Assembly: GCA_903927685.1 (NCBI GenBank)
Contig: CAIYOB010000081.1
Span: forward strand, 1 to 5,550
Source: an uncultured Planctomycetaceae bacterium
Lineage (GTDB): Bacteria; Planctomycetota; Planctomycetia; Pirellulales; Pirellulaceae
DNA: 5,550 nucleotides
Reading direction: 5' to 3'
Shown: positions 1 to 5,550 of the stretch, piece by piece
Layout: the number at the start of each line of letters is the position of its first letter
Position numbering within the stretch: position 1 is the first letter of the stretch
Translations under genes and position numbers: made by a program
Notes under the pieces: model-generated
Told to the model about the DNA's origin: nothing
Seen by the model: only the letters and a program-made list of their open reading frames with translations
Databases searched by the model: none

Positions 1-1191
1 TGATCGCCGCCACAAACGGCGGGCGTTTACAGCGTGTGAGCGTTCTCAAGAGCGCTACCTCGGCATCGGGCAGCGTGCAGCTCGCATCGCTCCAGTGGAT
101 CTCGTGGGCCGCCAATTCGCGAGAGCCCTGGGCCAGGGCTCTCAGAAACAGCCGCGAATCGTCCGCGTACCCGCTGGGATCCCAGATCGGCGACCGCCAC
201 ACGATGCCCAGCGGCAGCTGCGGGCTCGGCGAGCGCAAGGCGGCCAGTTCATCGGCCATCAGTTGGATCACGGCATCCAAGCTGGCCGGCACATGGCCGT
301 CGCCGTGCCCCGTTCGCTTCGGCGTCTCCGCTTTTTTGTCTTCCGTCTCCGCTCCGCGATCCAGCACCTTCGCGTGGGAGAACCACCGGTACTGCCCGGC
401 CAGCCAGGACAGAATCCAACCGCGCTCGCCGTCCAGGCGACCGTCGTGTTTCTCGTAGTAGAGCCACAGGTCGTGCATCATGGCGGCAATGGCTGCGTGC
501 CAGCACGTGGGCCGCCCTTGCTCGAGCAGATAACCCGCTTCGGCCGTGGTATACCGATTGAACTTCTCGACGTAGTGTTCGATGGACCGGTAACTGAAGT
601 GCTCGATGGCCAGGTCCGGATCGGGAGGCAGGCGGATGGCCGGACCCGAGAACTCGACGCCCCCGTGAAGCCGCTCGGAGAAGCGAAACCGGCCCCGCTT
701 CAAAACTCGCGGCATGGTGTAGCCCGGCCACCAGCCGCAGTGTTCAATCCATTTGCCGCAGAAGTACGATTTGAACGGAACGGTGATGGCGACGATCTCG
801 TTGCCCCGTTCGTGAACCAGTCCGCGGATCAATTCGCCAGTCCGTGGCGGAACCCGTTCGTCGGCGTCCAGAAACCACAGCCAATCGAAGCGGGCTTCCG
901 GGATGGCCATATTCCGCGCCGCATCGAAACCGGCAACGAGGGGGTGGGGCAGAACCCGCGTCACGTGAGGGCGCGCCAGTTCCACCGTCCGGTCGCTGCT
1001 TTCCATGTCGATCAGCAGCAGCTCGCCGACGTGCGGCTGCAGCGACTGCAGGCAGGCGACGATGTTCGCCTCTTCGTTACGAGCGAGAACGACGCCGGTA
1101 ATCCCGGGCGGACTCCTCGGGCGGCGAGTTCTTCGACAGTGTCTGGCCGGTCAAGCCGGGCCGCGGCGCTGTCGGGTGACGTCTGACGCAT
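1..1191 (-). CDS. Two-module glycosyltransferase (GT2 plus start of a GT-B-like module), partial, with an apparent frameshift near its 5' end
   Basis: Reading the minus strand, codons are open from about 1102 to the left edge. They encode a GT2 domain beginning ITGVVLARNEE (residue 31 if the frame is repaired). It has the nucleotide-sugar site IDMESSDRT, the DxD motif LDADER (D109, D111), and the stretch IEHFSYRSIEHYVEKFNRYT typical of WaaE-like GT2 enzymes. From about residue 329 a new module starts, GIVWRSPIWDPSGYADDSR, resembling the N-terminus of GT-B glycosyltransferases; it is cut by the window edge. Such enzymes transfer sugars from activated donors to glycans in the cytoplasm or at the inner membrane face; donor and acceptor are unknown. 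The only plausible start is ATG at 1191-1189 (MRQTSPDSAAARLDRPDTVE), with GGGAGG directly adjacent to the ATG and an in-frame stop upstream. That start lies in a different frame from the GT2 domain. One missing base in the run at 1103-1108 would give ...ARGVRPGITGVVLARNEE. About 397 codons are visible; the C-terminus is outside the window. Confidence 0.82.
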
Positions 1192-1990: not shown

Positions 1991-4912
1991 ATGTTCGTCA
2001 CTCGCGCCCGCCTGCGGCATTCCGGCGTGAATCAAGACGGCCAGCCGATCCGGCTGTCGCTGTGCATGATCGTGCGGGACAACGCCGCCACGCTCCGGCC
2101 GTGTTTGGCGAGCATCCGCCCCTGGGTGGACGAGATGGTCGTGGTCGACACGGGCTCGACGGATGAAACGCCGTCGATCGCGCAAGAATTCGGCGCCCGC
2201 CTGTTCCATTTCCCTTGGTGCGACGACTTTTCGGCGGCCCGCAACGAATCGCTACGGCACGCTCGCGGCCAATGGCTCTTCTGGATGGACTCCGACGACA
2301 CGATCGACCCGGACAACGGACGCCAGCTCAGCGACCTGGTCAACGGCCAGGACCCGCGCGGCGTTGTGGCGTATGTGATGCAGGTCCATTGCCCCGTGCA
2401 GCGCGACGAGACCGCCAGGGGCCTGACCGTGGTCGATCACATCAAGCTGTTCCGCAACGATCCGCGGATCCGCTTCGAGTTCCGCATCCACGAACAAGTT
2501 CTGCCGTCCATCCGCCGCCTCGGCGGCGAGGTGGCGTGGACGGACATTTTCGTCGTCCATTCCGGCTCCGACCAAACCCCGGCCGGGCGCATCCGCAAGT
2601 GCGAGCGCGACCTGCGCATCCTGGAACTCGAGCTGGCCCAACGGCCCGATCATCCCTTTGTCCTGTTCAACCTGGGCATGACGCACGCCGACATGGGCGA
2701 ACACGGGACCGCCGAGGCGTTCCTGCGGCGCTGCCTGACCGTCTCCCGGCCTGACGAGTCGCACGTCCGCAAGGCGTATGCCTTGCTGGTCGTCTCTCTC
2801 CAGGAGCAGGATCGCCTGGACGACGCCTGGGCAGCCAACTGCCATGGTCTGGAGCTATTCGGCGCGGATCCCGAGTTGCTCTTCCTCCGCGGCACGTTGG
2901 CCCACCGGTTGGGCAGACGCGAACTTGCCGCCGAGGCGTATCGGGGCGCGTTGGCCAACCGGGACCAGCGGCACTTTTCGAGCGTCGATCCCGGCGTGTT
3001 GGGCTACAAAGCACGCCACAATCTGGCCATTGTGCTCCAGGAACTTGGCCGGCCCGACCTGGCTGAGGTCCAATGGCGGCACGTGATCGGCGAGGCGCCC
3101 TCTTTTGCCGACGCCTACCGATGCCTCGGCGAGACGCTGGGGCAGGTCAGCACCACGGCGTACGATGCTGCGGGCAGGCCGATCGCCTCGATCGATCCGC
3201 TGGGCAACCCGACAACCAACGTGTACGACGCGGCTGATCGTCAGATTGCGACGGTCGATCCGCTGGGCCACCGAAACACGACGGCCTACGATGCCGCGGG
3301 GCGCACGGTCGCGTCGATCAACGCTCCGGGCCACGCCACGACGTTCGCGTACGACGCCGCGGGCCGGCGGATCGCGACGACGGATGCCCGCGGTGCGATC
3401 ACGACCACGATTTACGATGCCGCGGGCCGGACCCAAGCCACGGTGGATGCTCATGGCAGCCGGACCACCCTGGGTTACGACGTTGCGGGTCGACAAGTGG
3501 CGGTGACCAACGCGTTGGGTCACGTCTCGACGACGGTCTACGACGTCGCGGGGCGAACGGCTGCCGCCATCGATCCTTTGGGCCATCGGACGAGCTTCAG
3601 CTACGACGCCGCCGGTCGCCAGGTCGAGCTGATGAATCCGCTCGGATATTGCACGACCAGCGTGTACGATGCCGCCGGGCGGTCCGTCGCCAGTGTCAAT
3701 CCGCTGGGTGCCCGCACGACCTTCGGCTACGATGCTGGCGGAAGGCAGCAAGTCGTCCTGGATGCCAATGGTAACGCGACCACCACGGTGTCCGACGAAC
3801 TCGGCCGAAACTCCGCCCAGATTAACGCCCTGGGGCACCGCACGACCAGGGTCTACGATGCCGCCGGACGCACCACGGCCCTGGTCGACGCCCGCGGGAG
3901 CCGGCACAGCTTCAGCTACGATGCCACGGGACGCCAGACCGCGCTGATTGACCCGCTGGGCCGGATCACCACCAGCAGCCACGACGCGGCCGGGCGGCAG
4001 ATACTGCGCATCGACGCGCGCGGTAATCGGACCACGTACTCGTTCGACGCCGTGGATCGGCTCGCCGGTCGATGGTATCCCGACGACGCGCGGGCAACGT
4101 TCGTGTACGACGCCGCCGGCAACCGCATCGTACGCGGCGATTCGACGGGCATCCAGACGTACACCTACGACACCTTGAACCGTGTCGAGTCGATAGCCAG
4201 CCCGCTGTGCGGGTGGATGACCTACGCGTATGACGCAAACGGCCAACGCCAACGAACGATCGACCTGGACGGCGGAAGGGTGACGTTCGCATACGATGCC
4301 GTGGGCCGTATTGCCGAGGTCGTGAACTCGCAAGGCGAGCGCACCACCTTCAGCTACGACGCGGCTGGTCGGCGGACGCTGAAACAACTGGCCAATGGCA
4401 CGCGAGGGTCGTTCACGCACGATGCCGACGACCGCTTGGTGTCGCTGGCGAACCTGAAGTCCGACGACTCAGTGATTTCCAGCTTTGATTACGCGTGCGA
4501 CGCCGTTGGGAACCGCACGTCAGTTTTGGAGGCGAACGGCGATCGGGTCACTTGGACCTACGACACCACGTATCAGTTAACCAACGAACAGCGTTCTGGC
4601 GTGAATGCCTACCATACGACGTTCGTTTACGACCCCGTCGGGAATCGCCTCATGAAGAACGAAGACAGGGCCCTGACGACTTACACGTACGACACGGCCA
4701 ACCAGTTACAGACGAGCCAAGACGCCAGCGGCGTGACCACGTACACGTTCGACGCCAACGGCAACCAACAGATCGTGGAAGCCCCTGGTGGAGCGACCAC
4801 GACGTACGTCTGGGACTACGAGAACCAGACGACGTGCGTGGAACTGCCCGGCGGCGAACGTGTGACGATGGCGTACAATGCCGATAACCGCCGAGTCCGA
4901 AAGGTGACGTGA
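1991..4912 (+). CDS. Chimeric GT2 glycosyltransferase-TPR protein fused to RHS/YD repeats
   Basis: The protein has 973 residues. Residues 22-30 (LSLCMIVRD) open a GT2 domain, with VVVDTGSTD at 50-58, the conserved block FPWCDDFSAARNES and the metal/nucleotide motif DSDD at 100-103. TPR-like helices follow from about 221 (HPFVLFNLGMTHADMGEHG) to 383. This first part matches the cytoplasmic GT2-TPR enzymes common in planctomycetes. The last TPR stops after its first helix (SFADAYRCLGETLG), and the next residues are already an RHS repeat (QVSTTAYDAAGR). Sixteen YD repeats occupy 391-725, fifteen of them exactly 21 residues apart, followed by irregular YD motifs to 973. RHS/YD repeats normally form a secreted or surface-exposed beta-shell, yet no signal peptide or transmembrane segment is visible. 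The frame ends at TGA 4910-4912, just before the RHS core, which continues in another frame at 4914. I infer a fusion of a truncated GT2-TPR gene to a headless RHS gene. An assembly chimera is a real alternative. The start rests on GGAG at 1979-1982. Confidence 0.88.
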   Translation: MFVTRARLRHSGVNQDGQPIRLSLCMIVRDNAATLRPCLASIRPWVDEMVVVDTGSTDETPSIAQEFGARLFHFPWCDDFSAARNESLRHARGQWLFWMDSDDTIDPDNGRQLSDLVNGQDPRGVVAYVMQVHCPVQRDETARGLTVVDHIKLFRNDPRIRFEFRIHEQVLPSIRRLGGEVAWTDIFVVHSGSDQTPAGRIRKCERDLRILELELAQRPDHPFVLFNLGMTHADMGEHGTAEAFLRRCLTVSRPDESHVRKAYALLVVSLQEQDRLDDAWAANCHGLELFGADPELLFLRGTLAHRLGRRELAAEAYRGALANRDQRHFSSVDPGVLGYKARHNLAIVLQELGRPDLAEVQWRHVIGEAPSFADAYRCLGETLGQVSTTAYDAAGRPIASIDPLGNPTTNVYDAADRQIATVDPLGHRNTTAYDAAGRTVASINAPGHATTFAYDAAGRRIATTDARGAITTTIYDAAGRTQATVDAHGSRTTLGYDVAGRQVAVTNALGHVSTTVYDVAGRTAAAIDPLGHRTSFSYDAAGRQVELMNPLGYCTTSVYDAAGRSVASVNPLGARTTFGYDAGGRQQVVLDANGNATTTVSDELGRNSAQINALGHRTTRVYDAAGRTTALVDARGSRHSFSYDATGRQTALIDPLGRITTSSHDAAGRQILRIDARGNRTTYSFDAVDRLAGRWYPDDARATFVYDAAGNRIVRGDSTGIQTYTYDTLNRVESIASPLCGWMTYAYDANGQRQRTIDLDGGRVTFAYDAVGRIAEVVNSQGERTTFSYDAAGRRTLKQLANGTRGSFTHDADDRLVSLANLKSDDSVISSFDYACDAVGNRTSVLEANGDRVTWTYDTTYQLTNEQRSGVNAYHTTFVYDPVGNRLMKNEDRALTTYTYDTANQLQTSQDASGVTTYTFDANGNQQIVEAPGGATTTYVWDYENQTTCVELPGGERVTMAYNADNRRVRKVT
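3135..3141 (+). other. Fusion junction with microhomology between the GT2-TPR and RHS segments
   Basis: CGCTGGG at the join encodes the last TPR-like Leu-Gly. The same heptamer occurs at the matching place in RHS units, for example in the codons for Asp-Pro-Leu-Gly around 3198-3204 and 3260-3266. Aligned there, ETLGQVSTTAYDAAGR runs in step with DPLGHRNTTAYDAAGR, so the crossover keeps both the reading frame and the 21-residue register. Seeing the heptamer is direct; crossover at this point is inferred. Confidence 0.5.
3161..4165 (+). repeat. Sixteen-unit RHS/YD repeat array with a 63-bp period
   Basis: Units of the form YDAAGRxxAxxDPLGxxTTxx begin at 3161 and recur every 63 bases through 4106 (fifteen exact spacings); the sixteenth unit is 60 bases. 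Nucleotide identity between units is high around TACGATGCCGCGGG and lower elsewhere. Degenerate units include YDAADR (3224), SDELGR (3791), HDAAGR (3980) and FDAVDR (4043). The array lies inside the coding sequence; later YD motifs, after 4166, are irregularly spaced. In-frame tandem DNA repeats of this kind can expand, contract or recombine with other RHS loci. Confidence 0.88.
4901..4906 (+). promoter_or_regulatory. Internal Shine-Dalgarno-like site before the downstream RHS core frame
   Basis: AAGGTG lies seven bases before ATG 4914, and the upstream frame stops at TGA 4910-4912, one base before that ATG. The arrangement would suit translational reinitiation. The same bases encode Lys-Val of the upstream protein, so the match to the anti-Shine-Dalgarno sequence could be chance. 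Confidence 0.35.
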
Positions 4913-4913
4913 C

Positions 4914-5550
4914 ATGCCAGTTACCAACTACATCTGGGACGAAGTCAACGACACGTTGCTGATGGAAAAGGACGAGGCCGGGAACACAACGGCCGCGTAT
5001 ACGTACGAGCCCGGCCAGTACGGTCCGCTGATCTCACGACGTGGAAGTGGTCAGACCAACTACTACCACTTCGATGAGCAAGGTTCGACGCGGCAACTGA
5101 CTGACGCGAACCAGAACGTAACCGACTCCGCCGTGTACACCGCCTTCGGCGAGACGGTCGCCTGTTCGGGCACAACGACGAACCCGTTCGGGTACAAAGG
5201 CGCGCTTGGATACTACGCCAATCCGGAGACCGCCGATGTGTACGTGCGGGCAAGGCCGTACGAGCCCCTCATCGCCAGATGGCTCTCACACGCTCCTATG
5301 GTTCTCAGGTTTCGAGGCATCAACGGGTACGCGTATGCAAGCTGGAATCACGGTTACGCGAGTGGTGCTATCGAGATCCCAGGAAAGGCTCACTTTAACC
5401 CAGCAGAGATGGGGTTTCGGTTAGTATCAGCGGGGGTTGGCTATGCATCTGGGGAACGGCATGCGATTCCCACAGGTATCGCGTTTGTGGCCGACCTCAA
5501 GTGGGGGCCTGCAACCGACGAGCACTCCGAGGAGGGAGTTCGAGACTCCA
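4914..5550 (+). CDS. RHS repeat-associated core and start of a C-terminal tip, partial, split from the upstream RHS gene
   Basis: The frame is open from ATG 4914 to the right edge, with 212 residues visible. It starts inside an RHS repeat (VTNYIWDE, residues 3-10), so the ATG is not a natural domain boundary. The RHS core hallmarks follow: YYHFDEQGSTRQLTD at 50-64, VYTAFGE at 74-80, NPFGYKGALGYYANPET from 90, and VRARPYEPLIARWLS ending at 125. In RHS proteins the core plugs the beta-shell and marks the boundary of a variable C-terminal domain, often a toxin. The expected RDPI is here HAPM (126-129), and the usual DPxGL-like cleavage motif does not appear in the visible part. Residues 130-212 (INGYAYASWNHG, HFNPAEMGFR and on) match no domain I recognise and continue outside the window. 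The gene is probably the 3' part of the 1991-4912 gene, separated by a frame change at 4905-4914; AAGGTG at 4901-4906 could support coupled initiation. Confidence 0.82.
   Translation, partial: MPVTNYIWDEVNDTLLMEKDEAGNTTAAYTYEPGQYGPLISRRGSGQTNYYHFDEQGSTRQLTDANQNVTDSAVYTAFGETVACSGTTTNPFGYKGALGYYANPETADVYVRARPYEPLIARWLSHAPMVLRFRGINGYAYASWNHGYASGAIEIPGKAHFNPAEMGFRLVSAGVGYASGERHAIPTGIAFVADLKWGPATDEHSEEGVRDS

What the first reader, a model, noticed from the sequence alone, without database searches (positions are those of the whole stretch)
3100..3230. In-frame fusion of a GT2-TPR glycosyltransferase to a headless RHS array at a CGCTGGG microhomology
The upstream part is a recognisable cytoplasmic GT2-TPR enzyme that stops halfway through a TPR (after SFADAYRCLGETLG). 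The next residue already belongs to a YD repeat, with no linker, signal peptide or RHS N-terminal region. The heptamer at 3135-3141 recurs at the same codon position in RHS units, and the fusion preserves both the frame and the 21-residue phase. I know of no described GT2-TPR-RHS architecture. It could be a new way of diversifying RHS loci, a glycosyltransferase-linked polymorphic protein, or a chimera made by deletion or assembly.
Basis: partly seen in the sequence, partly recalled or inferred. Interest (0 to 1): 0.8.

Follow-up and report, generated by a model that had tools for sequence, protein, structure and literature searches.

The report
Glycosyltransferase gene fused to RHS array
A sugar-transferring enzyme gene is joined in frame to the repeats of an RHS protein, most likely because DNA between two neighbouring genes was lost, and the locus resembles a recurring planctomycete gene neighbourhood in which the RHS tip is often a separate gene with its own start.

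Summary
The in-frame join is real in the sequence: GT2-TPR up to L394 (3139), RHS repeats from G395 (3140), no stop. It looks derived: public protein P0002 is 380/383 identical to the GT half and departs from it exactly at the join, continuing as an intact 536-aa GT-TPR enzyme. No other fusion was found: no match spans the join in 397 class genomes, and none of 235 listed RHS hits matches the GT half. RHS genes flank 19 of 35 GT-TPR loci chosen by GT score, against 1 of 20 controls; the nearest downstream RHS match is on the same strand in 14 and on the opposite strand in none. Best reading: loss of the DNA between neighbouring genes at up to 6 nt of microhomology. An assembly or library chimera is not excluded. 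The frame break at 4910 is probably a recurring split, not decay: in 11 loci of relatives a separate ORF for the Rhs core and tip starts behind an array, in 9 with the array stop beginning 2-7 nt before its ATG, as in the window; related cassettes also stand without an array or in tandem. That split is the more interesting lead.

The parts
2..1006 (-). GT2 glycosyltransferase gene (cut by window edge), divergent from the rest
   Evidence: Pfam PF00535 2.8e-8; 50-52% identical stretch beside GT-TPR in L079 and L081
1442..1909 (+). NifU N-terminal-domain protein
   Evidence: Pfam PF01592 2e-25; NifU-like match in 10 of 45 GT-TPR loci, 0 of 20 controls
1991..3139 (+). GT2-TPR half of the fused ORF (residues 12-394); the open frame's first start codon is GTG 1958
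   Evidence: 380/383 identical to intact P0002 up to L394; Pfam GT2 and TPR
3135..3140 (+). CGCTGG, the longest stretch ending at the break that both parents could share if the RHS parent resembled its sister units
   Evidence: P0002 has Val after the last shared Leu; the same letters in RHS units at 3198, 3261, 3702, 3954
3140..4909 (+). Headless RHS (YD) repeat array, in frame with the GT half
   Evidence: PF05593 7.3e-77, TIGR01643 3.2e-65 for the whole protein; 14 matches to a unit pattern starting at residues 392-686, spaced 21 residues except one gap of 42, the first overlapping the join
4900..4913 (+). Weak Shine-Dalgarno-like AAAGG, then array stop TGA 4910-4912, 1 nt before the next ATG
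   Evidence: Sequence; similar layout in relatives; the window's own motif failed the strict SD test
4914..5550 (+). Separate ORF with Rhs-associated core and a C-terminal tip, runs off the window
   Evidence: TIGR03696 2.4e-9; separate core ORFs starting at the same point in relatives

Best explanation
The fused ORF arose when DNA between a GT2-TPR gene and an RHS gene lying downstream on the same strand was lost in one lineage. The break fell after codon 394 of the GT-TPR gene and inside a YD unit of the array, at up to 6 nt of shared sequence, and happened to stay in frame. Shown: the in-frame join, the near-identical intact GT-TPR protein, the frequent same-strand downstream position of RHS genes in relatives, and the lack of another fusion in the sets searched. 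Inferred: that it was one deletion, that it happened in a cell, and the microhomology. Likely consequence (inferred): the GT half may still fold, since natural short forms end nearby, but the array has lost the head that most RHS genes in these loci carry, so the fused protein probably does not do the RHS job; the core-tip ORF keeps its own start.
For: P0002 is 99% identical and departs exactly at the join. RHS in the flank of 19 of 35 GT-TPR loci against 1 of 20 control regions, Fisher p 3e-4; nearest downstream RHS same strand 14, opposite 0; distances 1.7-8.0 kb. Microhomology of 6 nt or more is expected in only 0.3-0.4% of random joins. GC3 is similar on both sides (GT half 0.83-0.86, array 0.79-0.81). 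6 nt is shorter than the k-mer overlap that assemblers normally need (recalled).
Against: One sequence, no reads, no whole genome held. The fused protein does not appear among the best 120 of two searches of a 5.8-billion-protein set. No near-identical RHS parent was found (best 59% over the whole array; proteins over about 1720 aa were outside the length limits), so linkage in this very lineage is not shown. 16 of the 35 loci show no RHS in the flank fetched, some with short flanks. Repeat arrays are prone to misassembly. Related genomes inflate the linkage statistics, and the controls come from only 10 genomes.
Confidence: 0.5

Rival explanations
1. Assembly or library chimera: two neighbouring or unlinked stretches of one or two strains were joined by template switching or by an assembler in the repetitive array.
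For: Intact protein at 99% identity exists elsewhere; fused protein not seen in the protein searches; no second fusion; the array is repetitive.
Against: At most 6 nt shared at the join; same strand and in frame; composition alike across the join; partners are often neighbours in relatives.
Confidence: 0.34
2. A maintained, functional fusion: a glycosyltransferase has replaced the RHS head and the chimera is expressed, for instance to glycosylate or display the array.
For: 984 codons open; natural short GT-TPR forms end near the same place; the array stop and the tip ORF keep the layout seen in relatives.
Against: No match spanning the join in 397 genomes and no GT half in 235 listed proteins; 18 of 22 RHS ORFs in GT-TPR loci carry a non-repeat stretch of at least 139 residues before the first YD motif, absent here.
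Confidence: 0.1
3. Recombination with a displaced RHS fragment from elsewhere in the genome rather than loss of DNA from one locus.
For: RHS arrays and loose core cassettes occur at several loci per genome in relatives.
Against: RHS genes lie downstream of GT-TPR on the same strand in 14 of 35 loci, which makes the local event simpler.
Confidence: 0.06

Closest known systems
GT2-TPR glycosyltransferases (PDB: GmaR 22ao; SunS 7msp/7msn)
   Same: GT2 domain near the N-terminus; P0002 matches GmaR at 4e-25 (query 21-173) and SunS at 4e-15 (query 23-272). Both are protein or peptide glycosyltransferases (SunS by the NCBIfam name; GmaR recalled).
   Different: GT-TPR ORFs of the 43-locus cluster (window included) have a median length of 1342 aa; the one scanned, in L001, also has GT1-type, methyltransferase and a second GT2 domain. 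In the window the enzyme is cut at L394 and continued by RHS repeats.
RHS / YD-repeat shell proteins (PDB 7q97, Tse15 8uxt, teneurin-like 9ifo)
   Same: YD repeats (7q97 at 1.3e-39) and an Rhs-associated core.
   Different: No head; repeats fused behind a glycosyltransferase; core and tip in a separate ORF.
Salmonella orphan rhs-CT modules (PMC3967940, passages read)
   Same: Extra pieces near a main rhs gene that share sequence with it and carry other tips; rearrangement can make new fusions.
   Different: That paper says orphan fragments usually lack translation initiation signals; here the cassettes have an ATG at the core start and mostly a Shine-Dalgarno motif, and the main gene itself is split at that point in part of the loci.
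TcB-TcC (BC) split of Tc toxin shells (recalled)
   Same: An RHS shell made from two polypeptides.
   Different: There the split lies elsewhere and the second protein also holds repeats (recalled); not compared here.

Membership tests
GT2-TPR glycosyltransferase | GT2 domain followed by TPRs | tested here: met
   Pfam PF00535 and several TPR families; 99% identical intact relative
GT2-TPR glycosyltransferase | Complete C-terminal TPR region | tested here: not met
   The last 153 residues of P0002 are absent from the window; natural short forms also lack most of them
RHS repeat protein | YD repeats | tested here: met
   PF05593 7.3e-77
RHS repeat protein | N-terminal head before the repeats | tested here: not met
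   Repeats start at the join. Of 22 RHS ORFs in relatives' GT-TPR loci, 18 have at least 139 residues before the first YD motif (16 at least 237), and 13 of these 18 have 8 or more Cys in the first 250; four start within repeats (two second pieces of cut genes, two at locus edges)
RHS repeat protein | Rhs-associated core | tested here: met
   TIGR03696 2.4e-9, but in a separate ORF from 4914
Polymorphic tip cassette | Conserved core with variable C-terminus among copies of one genome | tested here: met
   For relatives: in 4 of 6 pairs compared the first 90 residues are at least 83% identical per 30-column block, and in all 6 most later blocks are below 30%. The window holds one copy only, cut off, so this is not tested for the window itself
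Microhomology-mediated deletion | Both parents and the lost DNA known | not testable with these tools
   Only the GT parent is known, as a protein
Assembly chimera | Coverage or read-pair break at the join | not testable with these tools

The most novel reading that the evidence does not exclude
Planctomycetes carry a recurring locus in which protein-glycosyltransferase-like GT2-TPR genes stand upstream of RHS arrays (many with Cys-rich heads), and in many lineages the RHS protein is made as two polypeptides: the array, and a core plus variable tip started from its own ribosome-binding site, with spare tips as ready-to-translate cassettes. Tips could then be exchanged without gene fusion, and the GT could modify the array or head. 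The window would be a rearranged copy of such a locus in which the GT has replaced the head.
Probability: 0.4. Interest if true: 0.75.

Novelty: new variant of a known kind. Interest (0 to 1): 0.5.

Why it matters
The fusion alone is probably a one-off rearrangement. What makes the window worth keeping is its setting. GT2-TPR genes and RHS genes were neighbours far more often than the control regions predict, which makes glycosylation of RHS proteins a testable idea. And the RHS tip is repeatedly encoded as its own ORF with start signals. In Salmonella, orphan tips are described as usually lacking translation initiation signals and as being expressed after recombination (PMC3967940, passages); here they look able to be translated directly, so a split RHS system could use several tips in turn or at once.

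Tried and rejected
Decay by frameshift at 4910: I first took it as a sign of a pseudogene; rejected because the same kind of array-stop/tip-ATG layout recurs in relatives. Programmed frameshifting: unlikely, because the offset between the two frames differs among loci (array stop begins 2, 4, 5 or 7 nt before the ATG). P0253 (RHS plus GT2 in one protein) looked like a second fusion, but it has RHS first, then a different GT2-DUF2062 protein, and no match to the GT-TPR half. P0122 and P0132 seemed to cover the join; I take that as spurious alignment of repeats, since neither matches the GT half. Phage origin: P0002, a NifU-like and a zinc-ribbon-like protein of L068 and an integrase of L072 hit PHROGs, but 6 of the 10 proteins scanned had no hit. 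Exact junction 32-mer in viral contigs: 0 matches. Window RNA families: none at gathering scores. Pfam on 10 whole core-tip ORFs named no toxin domain; two showed only weak RHS matches below the curated cut-offs. One search used a wrong frame for the RHS query, so its lack of RHS hits is void and was redone. Two partial core matches (in L163 and L164) were left out of the 31 core starts. An earlier count said 11 loci with NifU; the table gives 10.

Full report
Check of the observation. The ORF from GTG 1958 to TGA 4912 encodes a GT2 domain, TPRs and then RHS/YD repeats. The last GT-side residue is L394 (codon 3137-3139) and the next, G395 (3140-3142), is already the Gly of an LG motif of a YD unit; 14 matches to the unit pattern follow at 21-residue spacing, with one gap of 42. 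CGCTGGG is at 3135 and at the same codon position in four further units. So the description is right. Three inferences drawn from it are weaker than stated: the shared stretch is at most CGCTGG, because the intact copy has Val after the same Leu; phase is not independent of frame; and short members of the family end near the same place. Of 18 short ones that I picked (7 genome loci, 11 listed proteins), 17 end 7-53 residues after the join column, 5 of the 7 loci within 12; 11 of the 120 listed homologues are 430 aa or shorter, and some of these may be cut by contig ends.

The GT parent. A homologue search with the GT half returned P0002, 536 aa, 380 of 383 identical, continuing without a break through further TPRs. 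The fused form is therefore the derived one. The fused protein itself is not in the best 120 of the junction search or of the array search, and no RHS protein near-identical to the window's array was listed (best P0129, 59% over the whole array). Those searches only consider proteins of about 541-1722 and 324-1030 aa, so a longer RHS parent would be missed.

No second fusion. The GT half matches none of the 235 proteins listed (120 and 115 new ones) at 1e-4. A 167-aa query across the join, searched in 397 genomes of one class, gave 74 matches in 31 genomes: 73 begin at query residue 78 or later, that is at most 3 residues before the RHS side, and one is a GT-TPR gene matched over residues 2-91 (at most 9 candidates per genome are scored, cut-off 1e-20). 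None of 95 GT-TPR frames in the loci then held, duplicates and distant relatives included, contains RHS repeats.

The partners are often neighbours. I fetched up to about 10 kb either side of GT-TPR genes. The 35 loci L064-L098 were taken from the top by GT-TPR score, leaving out G001 and G003, which I had already seen. An RHS match lies in the flank in 19 of the 35, against 1 of 20 control regions of 19.9 kb from 10 genomes with long contigs (Fisher p 3e-4); the GT-TPR loci are 3.1-19.9 kb, so the controls are if anything longer. Nearest RHS downstream: 14 on the same strand, 0 opposite; upstream: 5 same, 1 opposite; among 24 loci with at least 7 kb downstream, 13 have a same-strand RHS there. 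With the ten further loci that I fetched knowing or suspecting RHS nearby or with weaker GT-TPR scores the figures are 26 of 45, and 17 downstream same strand. Some genomes are close relatives and controls sit at arbitrary round coordinates, so the p value is a guide only. A NifU-like match occurs in 10 of 45 loci and 0 of 20 controls; the window's own upstream GT2 has a 50-52% identical neighbour in L079 and L081. Other neighbours are GT4-type glycosyltransferases, Clp-type AAA proteins, methyltransferases and further GT2 proteins. Of 22 RHS ORFs in these loci, 18 begin with at least 139 residues before the first YD motif, and 13 of the 18 have 8 or more Cys in the first 250; by eye I see no signal peptide in most, but no predictor was run.

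How the join arose. With the two genes a few kb apart on one strand, loss of the DNA between gives exactly this product. Random joins share 6 nt or more in 0.29% of cases, 0.40% of in-frame ones, so a microhomology-guided event is plausible, though the RHS parent's letters are inferred from sister units. Composition is alike on both sides (GC3 0.83-0.86 in the GT half, 0.79-0.81 in the array, 0.69 in the core ORF), which fits one genome but does not prove it. An artefact stays possible: no reads, one sequence, repetitive array. I weigh natural deletion at 0.5, artefact at 0.34.

The frame break at 4910. The RHS core follows in another frame from ATG 4914. In L072 and L094 the array also ends in a stop and, 2 nt later, an ATG opens the core ORF. 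A search with the core in 38 chosen genomes gave 86 matches in 28, 44 of them in open frames under 500 aa by my count of the table, contig-end cuts included. I then fetched 20 stretches, chosen because their core frames were short, so what follows is not a rate: 31 of 31 core starts (window included, two partial matches left out) are separate ORFs with an ATG at the core start; 12 follow an array, 19 do not. In 10 of those 12, window included, the array stop begins 2-7 nt before the ATG; the exceptions are L166 and L171, where the array match ends 89 and 75 nt upstream. A strict Shine-Dalgarno motif precedes 27 of 31, against 8.3% of 6217 ATGs in the same DNA; the window itself is one of the four without, having only AAAGG. 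Continuous array-core genes exist as well, in G002, G003, G014, G017, G036, G041, G068 and G093, so the split is not universal. In six pairs of cassettes compared within a genome, the cores are alike over about the first 90-120 residues (the pairs in L162 and L167 less so) and most later blocks are below 30% identity. Tips are often Cys-rich; Pfam named no tip domain in ten core-tip ORFs; by eye two (L160 4322-5314 and L167 8819-9814) show a His-Asp-Cys-Cys motif like that of phospholipase A2 (recalled), and P0125, an RHS protein, carries a precomputed PF00068.

Comparison with what is known. By sequence the GT half is closest in the PDB to GmaR and SunS (engineered TPR proteins score on the TPR part), the array to Rhs proteins and teneurin-like proteins. 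Two papers were seen as passages only: PMC3482391 (polymorphic toxins; 12 of 61 places shown; they mention planctomycetes and glycosyltransferase toxin domains, not GT2-TPR neighbours of RHS genes) and PMC3967940 (orphan rhs fragments that usually lack initiation signals and are expressed after recombination). Searches for a GT-RHS neighbourhood, an RHS fusion or a split RHS gene listed no paper whose title or start of abstract describes it; lists were capped, searches found no paper, and most subscription journals are not in that library.

Verdict. The join is real in the sequence, derived, and without a second example in what I could search; it is most simply a deletion product of a recurring gene neighbourhood. 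The neighbourhood and the split RHS tip are the parts worth pursuing.

Noticed in passing
window 4900-4916; L162, L165, L167, L168, L170, L172, L173, L174, L179: RHS array stop begins 2-7 nt before an ATG that opens a separate core-tip ORF; an SD motif usually sits in the end of the array gene. A split RHS gene rather than a frameshift.
   Followed up: partly
L160 (G215:C70), also L161, L162, L164, L165, L167, L168: Core-tip cassettes without an array just upstream or in tandem (four in L160), cores alike, tips mostly unrelated, own ATG and mostly an SD motif.
   Followed up: partly
L072, L073, L083, L093, L094 and other RHS loci: RHS proteins in GT-TPR loci often start with a Cys/Gly-rich head without obvious signal peptide.
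   Followed up: no
L068, L072, L083, L087, L092: Cys-rich, zinc-ribbon-like pieces ending in CPLGKW or similar, alone or fused to glycosyltransferases, near GT-TPR genes; one hits phrog_13558.
   Followed up: no
L029 and L085: RHS genes cut into two ORFs (1318/1316 and 639/649 aa) at a similar earlier place, the second starting MG(S/T)xKKTISY in both.
   Followed up: no
L098 9454-13012: GT-TPR match in two pieces (query 19-341 and 339-383) separated by about 2.5 kb of other sequence.
   Followed up: no
P0253 (880 aa): RHS repeats followed by a GT2-DUF2062 protein in one frame: another RHS-glycosyltransferase join, in the opposite order and with a different enzyme.
   Followed up: partly
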